Below the pieces are notes generated by a model that saw nothing but the letters and a program-made list of their open reading frames with translations, made no database searches and was not told the origin of the DNA. From assembly GCF_000275825.1 (NCBI RefSeq), contig NZ_JH719942.1:1193914-1257913 (forward strand): a DNA stretch of 64,000 nucleotides, read 5' to 3'. The position numbers and the translations under genes are program-made. The number at the start of each line of letters is the position of its first letter. Position 1 is the stretch's first letter. This document shows positions 22,725-52,566 of this stretch, piece after piece. Origin of the DNA: Saprospira grandis DSM 2844 (GTDB taxonomy: Bacteria; Bacteroidota; Bacteroidia; Chitinophagales; Saprospiraceae).

Positions 22725-22890
22725 TCCTGGACCTAAATCCCTGCTTTACAGTGGCGAAACTAAGGACTAAAACTCGGAAACCCAAAATATGTTTAAAGTT
22801 TCCTCGGTTTTTTTATCATTTTTTTTGTTCGCTTGGGAGCCCCAAGGGCTGCTAGATTTTTTCTTAACTTGGGCACAAATCAATAGAACT

Positions 22891-23685
22891 ATGTGGACTG
22901 CGCTTTTTTCCTTCTATCAACGGGCTCAATCGGGCCGCAAAATAGCTTGCCCCGCCTTGCAAGCATGGCGAGAATTGGTCTTGGAGGATCATCGGCAATT
23001 TTATTGTTTTTCGGCCCTAGAGGGACAGCGCGATTTACTCCGACACGATAGTCGGCCCATTCAAATTCAAGATTTGGGCGCAGGCAGTCGAAAGTCAGCC
23101 CCTAAACGAGTATCCGATTTGGCGAGGCGCTCGCTCTCTCCCGCCTGGCAGGCCCAGTTCTTATTTCGCCTCATCAATTTTCATCAGCCCCAAACAATCT
23201 TGGAGCTAGGGACCTCCTTGGGCATTTCGGCGCTTTATCAGCATGCGGCCAAGCGCTCGGCCCAAATGATTAGCATAGAGGGCTGCCCCGAAATTCACGC
23301 TATTGCCCAAAAGAATGCCCGCTTGTTTGGCGCCTCCACTAGTTTGCAGCTTTGGCAAGGCAGCTTTGCGGAGCTATTGCCCTCGGCCCTGCAGCAGTTG
23401 GGCCAGTTGGATTATGCCTTTATTGATGGGCATCATTTGCGGCAACCCACCCTAGATTATTTTGAGGCTTGCCTGCCTTATTTGGGCCCCAATGCCCTCC
23501 TGGTTTTCGACGATATTTATTGGTCCGAGGAGATGCAAACCGCCTGGAAAGAACTCAAGGCTCACCCTAAAGTCAGTTATAGTATTGATTTGGGCTGGGC
23601 GGGCTGCCTCTTTTTTGCCCCCCGTCCCCAAGGCTGGCCCCAACAGCTAGAGTTGGTTCCTTTTTGGGCCAAACCTTGGTCTTAA
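22891..23685 (+). CDS. Class I SAM-dependent methyltransferase
   Basis: It encodes 264 residues from the ATG at 22891 (MWTALFSFYQRA). The frame is open to 22789, but that stretch encodes only a hydrophobic run unlike the family start. The SAM-binding motif I is TILELGTSLGIS, followed by an acidic SIEG after the second strand, LDYAFIDGHH, and a late FDDIYWSEEM. The conserved upstream block QDLGAGSRKS..RVSDLAR matches a Bacteroidota O-methyltransferase-like group. The substrate cannot be inferred. It is divergent from tetR and ends at GMR locus 9. Confidence 0.75.
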   Translation: MWTALFSFYQRAQSGRKIACPALQAWRELVLEDHRQFYCFSALEGQRDLLRHDSRPIQIQDLGAGSRKSAPKRVSDLARRSLSPAWQAQFLFRLINFHQPQTILELGTSLGISALYQHAAKRSAQMISIEGCPEIHAIAQKNARLFGASTSLQLWQGSFAELLPSALQQLGQLDYAFIDGHHLRQPTLDYFEACLPYLGPNALLVFDDIYWSEEMQTAWKELKAHPKVSYSIDLGWAGCLFFAPRPQGWPQQLELVPFWAKPWS

Positions 23686-23702
23686 CTAGCTTGTTTTCTT
23701 CT

Positions 23703-23832
23703 TTTTTTGGGGCCCGCGGCCAGCAAGCTGGCCGCCGCTATGCTTTGGGGCTCGCTATTCGCTCGGCCCTTCGCTGGCTGCGCCAGCTTGGTCTGGCCTA
23801 CGGCCACCCCTCCGCAGCGCTGGGCCGCTCAA
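23703..23832 (+). repeat. GMR locus 9
   Basis: A GGGGCCCGCGGCC variant with stem GGCCAGCAAGCTGGCC, core GCTCGCTATTCGCTCGG and end CGCAGCGCTGGGCC, just past the methyltransferase stop. Bases 23833-24078 after it hold no gene or clear motif. Confidence 0.88.
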
Positions 23833-24078
23833 CGGTCTTTTTTCTTTTGGCGGTCTTCTTCGGCAGTTAATTTTATAAGCTCTAGGCTAGCTTTTCAAAC
23901 AGCCCTCTAAAGAGGGCCTTTGGATAAGGATCTTCTCTGCAATAACTATTTACTAAGGCCATCTATATCCACCTTTGAGGCCCTTTAGGGCTGACTCCAT
24001 TGGATTAGCCTAGGGGCTTGTCCCTAGGCGATGATTGGCTGCCCCTGCTTTTGAGTCTTTAGCTGGACTCATTTATTG

Positions 24079-24644
24079 CTCCTATTATAGTAGTTCTACT
24101 GTTCCAATACACTAGTTGTAGTGCTCGCATACCGTAGCTATACTGTATGATTGAGGTAGTCAAAGTCCTCTATATACGTTATGGAAGTGTATAACATACG
24201 TTGTGTAAGTGTATGATATAGGTTGTGGAACTATATCATATAGGTTATAGAACTGCATAATATAGGTTGTAGGACCCCAAATAGACGTTCCAGGACGTCT
24301 ACTTTGGGGTCCCTAGACGTCTATTTGGGGGTTAAGGGACTTATCTCATGGGGTCTAACAACCTATACAATAGAGTCCAGAACGTACCTAATGGGGTCTA
24401 GGGACCTCCTCCATGGGGTTAGGGGACCTATATCATACAGTTCGAAACGTCTATTATGGGGTTGAGGGACCTATCTCATGGGGTCTAACAACCTATACAA
24501 TAGAGTCCAGAACGTACCTAATGGGGTTGAGGGACCTACTCTATAGGGTTAGGGAACCTATATCATACAGTTCGGAACGTCTATTATGGAGTTGAGGAAC
24601 CTATATCATAGAGTATAACCACCTCTATTTAGGTTTTGGGGACA
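24079..24644. repeat. Degenerate 22-bp-period tandem array A
   Basis: About 26 consecutive units of 22 bp (three are 20 bp: 24167-24186, 24451-24470, 24581-24600). Early units share ATATAGGTTGTGGAAC; later ones share ATGGGGTTnAGGGACC. A higher-order 130-bp duplication (24341-24470 and 24471-24600) differs at about 10 positions. The period is not a multiple of three and no gene lies here. Units 24271-24314 form an 18-bp hairpin (GGACCCCAAATAGACGT with its complement). Confidence 0.8.
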
Positions 24645-24698
24645 AAAAAGGGGGAGCTTTAGGCAGGAAGAAAGAAGAATCAGGACAGATCTAGGCAC

Positions 24699-24736
24699 AA
24701 AAAAAAAGAGTCACTGATAAAATCAGTAACTCTTTT
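24699..24736 (-). terminator. Intrinsic terminator of tRNA-Val
   Basis: On the minus strand AAAAGAGTTACTGAT pairs with ATCAGTGACTCTTTT and nine T follow. The tract is followed by GTGCC and array A. Confidence 0.85.
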
Positions 24737-24740
24737 GTAG

Positions 24741-24815
24741 TGGGCGAAGAGGGATTCGAACCCCCGACCCTCTGGGTGTAAACCAGATGCTCTGAACCAA
24801 CTGAGCTATTCGCCC
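24741..24815 (-). tRNA. tRNA-Val (anticodon UAC)
   Basis: A 75-base cloverleaf: acceptor GGGCGAA/TTCGCCC, D-arm AGCTCAGTTGGTTCAGAGC, anticodon arm TCTGG-TTTACAC-CCAGA, T-arm with GGTTCGAATCC, discriminator A. CCA is not encoded. Confidence 0.95.
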
Positions 24816-40777: not shown

Positions 40778-40778
40778 G

Positions 40779-40851
40779 TGATTTCGCCGGGGTTCGAACC
40801 CGGGACCCTTTGATTAAAAGTCAAATGCTCTACCAGCTGAGCTACGAAATC
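40779..40851 (-). tRNA. tRNA-Lys (anticodon UUU), copy 3 in transcript order
   Basis: A 73-base cloverleaf: acceptor GATTTCG/CGAAATC, anticodon loop CTTTTAA, T-arm GGGTTCGAACCC, discriminator A. Identical in body to the two upstream copies. Confidence 0.95.
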
Positions 40852-40887
40852 AACCTAAAAGGCTAAACTCTATATAAACTTTTCTTG

Positions 40888-40960
40888 TGATTTCGCCGGG
40901 GTTCGAACCCGGGACCCTTTGATTAAAAGTCAAATGCTCTACCAGCTGAGCTACGAAATC
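40888..40960 (-). tRNA. tRNA-Lys (anticodon UUU), copy 2
   Basis: Same 73 bases as its neighbours; spacers of 36 and 33 bases differ in sequence, so the copies are tandem genes in one probable transcript. Confidence 0.95.
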
Positions 40961-40993
40961 AATCCAGAAATTTAGCCTCTATATTATATGTTG

Positions 40994-41066
40994 TGATTTC
41001 GCCGGGGTTCGAACCCGGGACCCTTTGATTAAAAGTCAAATGCTCTACCAGCTGAGCTACGAAATC
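40994..41066 (-). tRNA. tRNA-Lys (anticodon UUU), copy 1
   Basis: First of three identical copies in transcript order. The promoter should lie in 41067-41170. Confidence 0.95.
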
Positions 41067-51950: not shown

Positions 51951-52566
51951 CCATCAAGAGGGGTTCCCATACCCATCAGGAGGGGTTCCTATACCCATCA
52001 AGAGGGGTTCCCATACCCATCAAGAGGGGTTCCCATACCTATCAAGAGGGGTTCCCATACCCATCGAGAGGGGTTCCCATACCCATCGAGAGGGGTTCCC
52101 ATACCCATTCGCAGGGGGTTGGCTAGCCCTCTAGGGGGCTAGCCTTAGTCCTCCCAAGGGCTATTCCTAATCATTAGGACTATTCTTCTACCTCCAAGCG
52201 AGGGCTTGTCTTAGTCCTCCCAAGGACCTAATCAAATCCTCTTGAGGGGCAGCTCTAATCCTCTAGAGCTGGCCTCCTAGTCCTCAGGACCATTCTTCTA
52301 CCTAAAGAGGAGGACTTAGGCTAGTCATCGGCAGGACTTGAACTGCTCCAAAGGAGGACCTATAGAGGTCCTCTAGAGCAACTAGACCTATAGTATAGAG
52401 GACTTGAATAGGCCCAAAAGAGGAGCTACAGAAGCCCTCTAAAGGACCTCCCCTGCCCCAAGCGAGGACTTGGACAAGTACTATTGAGGAGCTATACAAA
52501 TACAAGCGAGGAGCTCACTAAGTCCTGCTGAGGGGGTTCAGTACTCCTCGCCCTTATTTCAGTCCT
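51951..52566. repeat. Degenerate 22-bp-period tandem array B
   Basis: Seven near-identical 22-bp units (51951-52104; core AGAGGGGTTCCCATAC) pass without change of register into at least 20 diverged units (52105-52544, partial to 52566). In the diverged part the best-kept positions are a pyrimidine-rich start (TCCTC) and AGGR at positions 9-12 (for example GAGGACTT). Twenty-seven units keep exactly 22 bp with no insertion or deletion. No gene is present. Confidence 0.85.

What the first reader, a model, noticed from the sequence alone, without database searches (positions are those of the whole stretch)
24079..24644. Array A: a second, unrelated-looking array with the same 22-bp period
About 26 units between a methyltransferase gene and tRNA-Val share the same period with a different consensus (GGGGTTnAGGGACC). 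Three units are 20 bp, and two of these close a 130-bp higher-order duplication. The finding of two long arrays of the same unusual period at separate sites in one window points to a genomic family rather than accident.
Basis: seen in the sequence. Interest (0 to 1): 0.78.

Follow-up and report, generated by a model that had tools for sequence, protein, structure and literature searches.

The report
Saprospira two-helix-turn intergenic satellite element
Array A is a real, roughly 550-bp copy of a repeat element found so far only in one genus of marine filamentous bacteria, whose many different intergenic repeat arrays nearly all keep a spacing of 21-22 bases or a multiple of it, and next to which a small mobile element inserts again and again.

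Summary
Window 24081-24626 carries 25 degenerate units stepping 22 bp (four steps of 21 bp; I found none of 20 bp) and a 130-bp duplication 91.5% identical. The 22-bp signal far exceeds dinucleotide shuffles. The genome is a Saprospira close to S. grandis. (1) Array A is one copy of an interspersed element with fixed architecture (left units, a 34-60-bp central palindrome, right units). Three paralogues lie elsewhere in this genome; an orthologue lies at the same tRNA-Val site in all three finished relatives. (2) The genus holds many unrelated intergenic satellites whose periods cluster at 21-22, 41-43, 65 and 81-87 bp. At two of five loci compared between species the array has a different sequence but the same period. 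A 272-bp MITE (40 copies scored, probably over 100) lies beside arrays; one empty site shows it landing at the edge of an existing array with an 8-bp duplication. Array A evolves no more slowly than the neighbouring MITE remnant, so a host function is not supported. It resembles BrickBuilt, REP/BIME and "constant size, variable sequence" repeats without passing every test of any. Verdict: new variant of a known kind.

The parts
22789..23685 (+). O-methyltransferase-like CDS, left neighbour
   Evidence: ORF; Pfam PF13578 E 6.9e-15
23882..24060 (+). truncated copy of the 272-bp TIR-bearing MITE (consensus positions 53 to about 232); its right-hand part faces the array
   Evidence: 90% match to the MITE consensus, 53-211; rest by eye against other copies; family size
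24081..24626 (.). array A: 25 units of 22 bp, four of them stepping 21 bp; A-family element
   Evidence: segmentation, autocorrelation against dinucleotide shuffles, paralogues, orthologues
24273..24312 (.). central inverted repeat GACCCCAAATAGACGTTCCAGGACGTCTACTTTGGGGTC; landmark of the A family
   Evidence: palindrome of 34-60 bp at the same relative place in most A-family copies from four species
24317..24576 (.). two 130-bp blocks, each made of two 65-bp blocks (22+22+21)
   Evidence: 91.5% identity at offset 130; TRF periods 65 and 130
24650..24690 (-). degenerate remnant resembling the MITE left end in inverted orientation; better preserved in the G004 orthologue (AAAGTTTTAAACAGACTC)
   Evidence: orthologue alignment read against the MITE consensus; inference
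24704..24736 (-). intrinsic terminator of tRNA-Val (15 pairs plus T run), so the array lies beyond the tRNA transcript
24740..24815 (-). tRNA-Val (tac), right neighbour
51951..52560 (.). array B: clean 22-bp part 51951-52108 plus degenerate 22-bp part to about 52560; a different family with the same period

Best explanation
Array A is one copy of a Saprospira-specific interspersed satellite element. [quoted passage not shown] Shown: the periodicity, the collinear paralogues with a central palindrome, the conserved site in four species, unit-sized gains and losses between species, replacement of the array sequence at two orthologous loci, and MITE insertion at an array edge with an 8-bp target duplication. 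Inferred: the element was copied to new sites as a block, through flanking repeat modules by transposition or recombination. Its units then grow, shrink and homogenise by slipped replication or unequal exchange between similar units, and larger steps such as the 65 to 130-bp doubling arise the same way. Self-complementary DNA makes the array prone to slippage and attractive to the MITE's transposase, so the arrays serve as intergenic landing pads. No host function is needed to explain what is seen. Why the period stays at about 21-22 bp is not shown; the likeliest cause is a copying or protein-phasing step that works in whole helical turns.
For: Periodicity far above shuffles. Collinear paralogues, 67-72% over about 300-400 bp. 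Central palindrome at the same position in most A-family copies of four species. Indels between orthologues match the unit: 44 bp missing in G004, 65 and 22 bp extra in G002. Of 55 distinct arrays, 46 have periods of 21, 22 or 41-43 bp and six more 65-87 bp; the three others are 48 (fully open, probably coding), 105 and the tRNA-Lys triplet at 109 (the set is enriched by the searches used). In an unbiased 624-kb sample all but one non-coding, non-CRISPR array (L089, 105 bp) fall on 21, 22, 41 or 42. Same-locus arrays differ in sequence between species (L060/L127, L071/L121). The MITE has an array within about 80 bp of its right end in 20 of 30 copies and of its left end in none. Empty site: G002 has the array without the MITE, G001 has the MITE flanked by CAGATAGT at that array's edge. 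Array A identity with G001 is 0.962 against 0.972 for the MITE remnant, P 0.65.
Against: Array A is kept at its site in all four complete genomes, and it changes less than third codon positions (P 6e-8), although the neighbouring MITE remnant does so too. Both strands fold better than dinucleotide shuffles (z -4.8 and -7.1), so a structural role is not excluded. A within-unit dyad could not be shown for array A (P 0.40), which weakens the self-complementarity step for its units. How the A element moves was not caught: no empty site was found for it. Five of the eight unbiased arrays have no MITE beside them, and in the paralogue L010 it is the MITE's left-type end that faces the array, so the orientation rule is not absolute.
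Confidence: 0.6

Rival explanations
1. Host function as phased DNA: the arrays are runs of binding sites on one face of the helix for a nucleoid or condensation protein, and the protein's spacing sets the 21-22 bp period. Sequence may drift because only spacing and shape matter.
For: Period near two helical turns across unrelated sequences; the site beside tRNA-Val kept in four species; the same idea was proposed for constant-size repeats by Subirana and Messeguer (PMC8161180).
Against: Array A diverges as fast as the adjacent MITE remnant; array family and copy number differ between species at the same locus; no motif seen to be shared by all families.
Confidence: 0.17
2. BrickBuilt-like composite: the array is internal cargo of a MITE and spreads by transposition of the whole TIR-bounded unit.
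For: MITE pieces lie on both sides of array A; in the G004 orthologue the right side ends in a MITE-like terminus AAACAGACTC and the left begins GAGACTGTT; the P. gingivalis precedent is PMC4596501.
Against: Most MITEs here are complete, with both ends on one side of the array; the G002/G001 pair shows MITE insertion beside an existing array; G004's left GAGACTGTT aligns with array sequence in the other species and may be chance.
Confidence: 0.12
3. REP/RAYT-type system: the arrays are hairpin repeats spread by the single Y1 transposase of this genome.
For: One stand-alone Y1_Tnp gene, 131 aa, flanked on both sides by interspersed palindrome modules; units of several families hold short palindromes whose arms differ but still match.
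Against: The modules beside the Y1 gene are not the 21-22-bp arrays; no GTAG or CGTC-type head was tested on the arrays; the covariation test on 21-bp units was inconclusive.
Confidence: 0.08
4. The arrays are transcribed and act as structured RNAs or 3'-end hairpins.
For: Strong predicted folds on both strands; transcription of 52-nt repeats reported in B. coagulans (PMC8161180, PMC8625621).
Against: A strong terminator separates tRNA-Val from the array; no Rfam family matches; promoter-like sites no more than in shuffles.
Confidence: 0.05

Closest known systems
Constant-size, variable-sequence tandem repeats of bacteria (Subirana and Messeguer; PMC8161180)
   Same: Several unrelated families in one genome share one repeat length near two helical turns (20-21 nt in Bacillus); non-coding; only partly conserved between strains.
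   Different: Here the length is 21-22 bp with clear doublings (41-43) and higher multiples; arrays have defined landmarks (a shared tail, a central palindrome) and a MITE beside them; a Bacteroidota genus.
BrickBuilt MITE with 23-nt minisatellite, Porphyromonas gingivalis (PMC4596501)
   Same: Intergenic minisatellite of nearly the same period tied to a MITE with inverted-repeat ends; unit-number change between strains; same phylum.
   Different: BrickBuilt keeps one repeat sequence inside leader and tail; here many unrelated sequences lie mostly outside a complete MITE, and one empty site shows separate arrival.
REP/BIME elements as targets of insertion sequences (Tobes and Pareja, PMC1525189)
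   Same: Intergenic palindromic repeats that a mobile element uses as insertion targets.
   Different: Units are tandem with fixed 21-22-bp spacing and no REP head was identified; the inserting element is a non-autonomous MITE.

Membership tests
Constant-size, variable-sequence repeats (Subirana and Messeguer) | Several non-coding families per genome with one constant repeat length and unrelated sequences | tested here: met
   18 arrays at 21, 8 at 22, 12 at 42, 5 at 43, 3 at 41 bp, with several unrelated consensus sequences
Constant-size, variable-sequence repeats (Subirana and Messeguer) | Repeat length 20-21 or 51-53 nt | tested here: not met
   The A and B families are 22 bp (65-bp blocks in A); other families are 21 and 41-43
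[quoted passage not shown]
   CCAGAC is shared by most 21-bp families, not by the A and B families (by eye)
BrickBuilt | Array enclosed between leader and tail with terminal inverted repeats | tested here: inconclusive
   MITE remnants on both sides of array A, but most MITEs here are complete on one side of the array
BrickBuilt | One 23-nt repeat sequence shared by all copies | tested here: not met
   Periods 21-22 and 41-43 with unrelated consensus sequences
BrickBuilt | Intergenic location | tested here: met
   Array A lies between a CDS and tRNA-Val; seven tail loci read by eye are between genes
REP/BIME with RAYT | 20-40-bp palindromic unit | tested here: inconclusive
   Within-unit dyad not significant in array A (P 0.40); best dyad axis 59% paired in 21-bp units but no clear covariation
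REP/BIME with RAYT | GTAG or CGTC tag at one end of the unit | not tested
   No systematic search made
REP/BIME with RAYT | Y1 transposase flanked by the same repeats | tested here: not met
   The Y1 gene is flanked by other palindrome modules, not by 21-22-bp arrays
CRISPR | Identical repeats with unique spacers | tested here: not met
   Units are contiguous and degenerate, with no spacers
MITE (the neighbouring 272-bp element) | Terminal inverted repeats, target duplication, small size without a transposase gene | tested here: met
   TIR GAGACTGTTTAAAATTTTGTGT; 8-bp duplications CAGATAGT and CCGAATAG; consensus only 272 bp

The most novel reading that the evidence does not exclude
A dedicated process in this genus measures DNA in two-helix-turn steps and can rewrite an array at a given locus with a new sequence while keeping the step and the flanks, so that the repeat length, not the sequence, is the inherited trait.
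Probability: 0.12. Interest if true: 0.8.

Novelty: new variant of a known kind. Interest (0 to 1): 0.5.

Why it matters
Why some bacteria keep tandem repeats of one fixed length but free sequence is an open question (PMC8161180). This genus offers a natural experiment. Orthologous loci in four closely related complete genomes show the same array, an array of a different sequence, or none, together with a datable MITE insertion. That makes it possible to test whether the period comes from mutation, from a protein or from selection.

Tried and rejected
Protein-coding repeat: array A's unit is 22 bp, and the only ORF listed inside it (60 aa, 24413-24595 +) only reads through the repeats. CRISPR: no spacers. 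Known RNA: no Rfam match. Transcript of tRNA-Val: a terminator lies before the array. Within-unit palindrome in array A: not significant. Stem covariation in 21-bp units: axis visible, covariation inconclusive. Purifying selection on array A: no slower than the MITE remnant. MITE as generator of the arrays: the empty site shows an array without the MITE at an orthologous locus. IS256-type transposase as the MITE's driver: PF00872 absent from the genome; the driver was not found. MITE beyond the genus: none in 118 other genomes of the order. Quantised periods in two other genera of the family: not seen in about 400 kb. The searches made in the literature found nothing on Saprospira repeats; the J Bacteriol 2020 paper of Subirana and Messeguer is not held.

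Full report
What was checked. The window lies at G000:C2:1193914-1257913 of a 4.5-Mb genome in five contigs. A window protein finds S. grandis str. Lewin at 97% identity, on a contig of the same length as that of relative G001, so the genome is a Saprospira close to S. grandis. Array A is real: 22-bp autocorrelation 0.522, against at most 0.351 for the best period in 300 dinucleotide shuffles. Segmentation gives 25 units, 24081-24626, with four 21-bp steps that recur every 65 bp. The 130-bp duplication is 91.5% identical. The flanks, a methyltransferase-like gene and tRNA-Val, are as described.

What it is. BLAST of array A in its own genome finds three collinear relatives, two of them 69-72% identical over about 400 bp and the third 67% over about 300 bp, so this is an interspersed element. 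Orthologues sit at the same place in G001, G002 and G004. In most A-family copies of these four genomes the longest palindrome is the same 34-60-bp sequence around ACCCCAAAATAGACGTCCTAGGACGTCTATTTTGGGGT, at the same relative position. Left of it stand units of the type TATAGGTTGTGGAACT, right of it units of the type ATGGGGTTNNGGGACC (read). Between orthologues the length changes match whole units or blocks: 44 bp missing in G004, 65 and 22 bp extra in G002.

The wider family. In 624 kb chosen without regard to repeats (28 stretches and the window) there are eight non-coding arrays with periods 21, 22, 41 or 42 bp, which scales to about 57 per genome (95% range 24-112). One further non-coding tandem repeat in that sample, of 105 bp, does not fit (L089). 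Over all loci fetched, a set enriched by searches with A, B, the MITE and the tail, 55 distinct arrays have periods 21 (18), 22 (8), 41 (3), 42 (12), 43 (5), 65, 81, 82, 84 (2), 87, plus 48, 105 and 109. The 48-bp one is fully open and probably coding. The 109-bp one is the tRNA-Lys triplet. Consensus sequences fall into several unrelated groups. Most 21-bp arrays share CCAGAC and a tail TTTTGCCCTTTTTGATTTTGTTACATT, found in 15 clear copies. At orthologous loci the array can differ in sequence: at the L060 locus G000 and G002 share one 21-bp repeat and G001 has another; likewise at the L071 locus.

The MITE. Left of array A lies a truncated copy (90% to the consensus) of a repeat of which 40 copies were scored in this genome out of 113 candidates. 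Its 272-bp consensus has terminal inverted repeats GAGACTGTTTAAAATTTTGTGT / ACACAAAATCCTGAACAGTCCC. Of the 30 best copies, 20 have a tandem array within about 80 bp of the right end; none has one on the left. In the unbiased sample six MITE copies occur. Three have one of the eight arrays on the right; two more, the same copies as L058 and L073, have two to three units of a 21-bp repeat there. At the L054 locus G002 has the 42-bp array and no MITE, while G001 has the MITE at the array edge flanked by CAGATAGT on both sides. L048 carries the MITE inside an array-like sequence with the duplication CCGAATAG. At that first locus, then, the array does not depend on the MITE, and the G001 copy has the marks of an insertion at its edge. 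An older insertion with precise loss in G002 is not excluded, since G004 has a MITE-like end at the same point. The orientation rule has an exception, the A-family paralogue L010. No Transposase_mut gene is present, so the enzyme that moves the MITE is unknown. The MITE was not found in the 118 other genomes searched in the order.

How it probably works. Array A differs from G001, G002 and G004 by 3.8, 4.9 and 13.3%. The MITE remnant differs from G001 by 2.8%, flanking intergenic DNA from the three by 4-6%, and third codon positions by 11-28%. The array therefore changes like the neighbouring non-coding DNA, or somewhat faster in G004, and more slowly than third codon positions, as the MITE remnant does too (for G001). 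This gives no support for a special function. The likeliest account is a non-coding element that spreads as a block, changes by gain and loss of units, and is used as a landing site. Block spread, slippage and the cause of the fixed period are inferences. Folding of both strands is stronger than in shuffles, but a within-unit dyad in array A is not significant, and the test on 21-bp units shows a palindrome axis without clear covariation.

Compared with what is known. The pattern of constant length and free sequence was described by Subirana and Messeguer for 20-21 and 52-nt repeats, mainly in Bacillus (PMC8161180). BrickBuilt in Porphyromonas is a 23-nt minisatellite inside a MITE (PMC4596501). 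REP elements are known targets of insertion sequences (PMC1525189). The present arrays share features with each, and for each family at least one defining feature was tested and not met. About 400 kb from two other genera of the same family showed no such quantised periods.

Limits. Counts rest on stretches and searches, not on the whole genome. Loci were found partly through the repeats themselves. Only five MITE loci were compared between species, and the flank of one of them (L059) is itself multi-copy.

Noticed in passing
L138:1480-1875 (C2 about 124969-125307): A single stand-alone Y1 (IS200-like) transposase gene, flanked on both sides by the same interspersed palindrome module (GGGCTTCAGCCC type); a possible RAYT-REP pair.
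   Followed up: partly
L027:13-2125 and L094:13305-19842: Two CRISPR-like arrays, period about 70, with repeat GTTTCAATGCTGCTTCGCCTGCAATGGGTTTAGTAT or its complement; a CRISPR array also starts about 40 bp from the right side of a MITE copy in L064.
   Followed up: no
window 40778-41066 -: Three near-identical tRNA-Lys (ttt) genes in tandem, spacing about 109 bp.
   Followed up: no
window 23700-23840 and many other intergenic regions: A GC-rich interspersed module (GGGGCCTCCGC..GGCTCGC..GGTCTGGCC..) follows many genes; the intergenic DNA looks like a mosaic of repeat modules.
   Followed up: no
L132, L135, L085 (41-bp arrays): Related 41-bp units carry different hairpin stems at the same place (GGGAAAATCCC, GGGCGTGACGCCC, GGGGGATTCCCCC), suggesting that the stem is kept while its sequence changes.
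   Followed up: no
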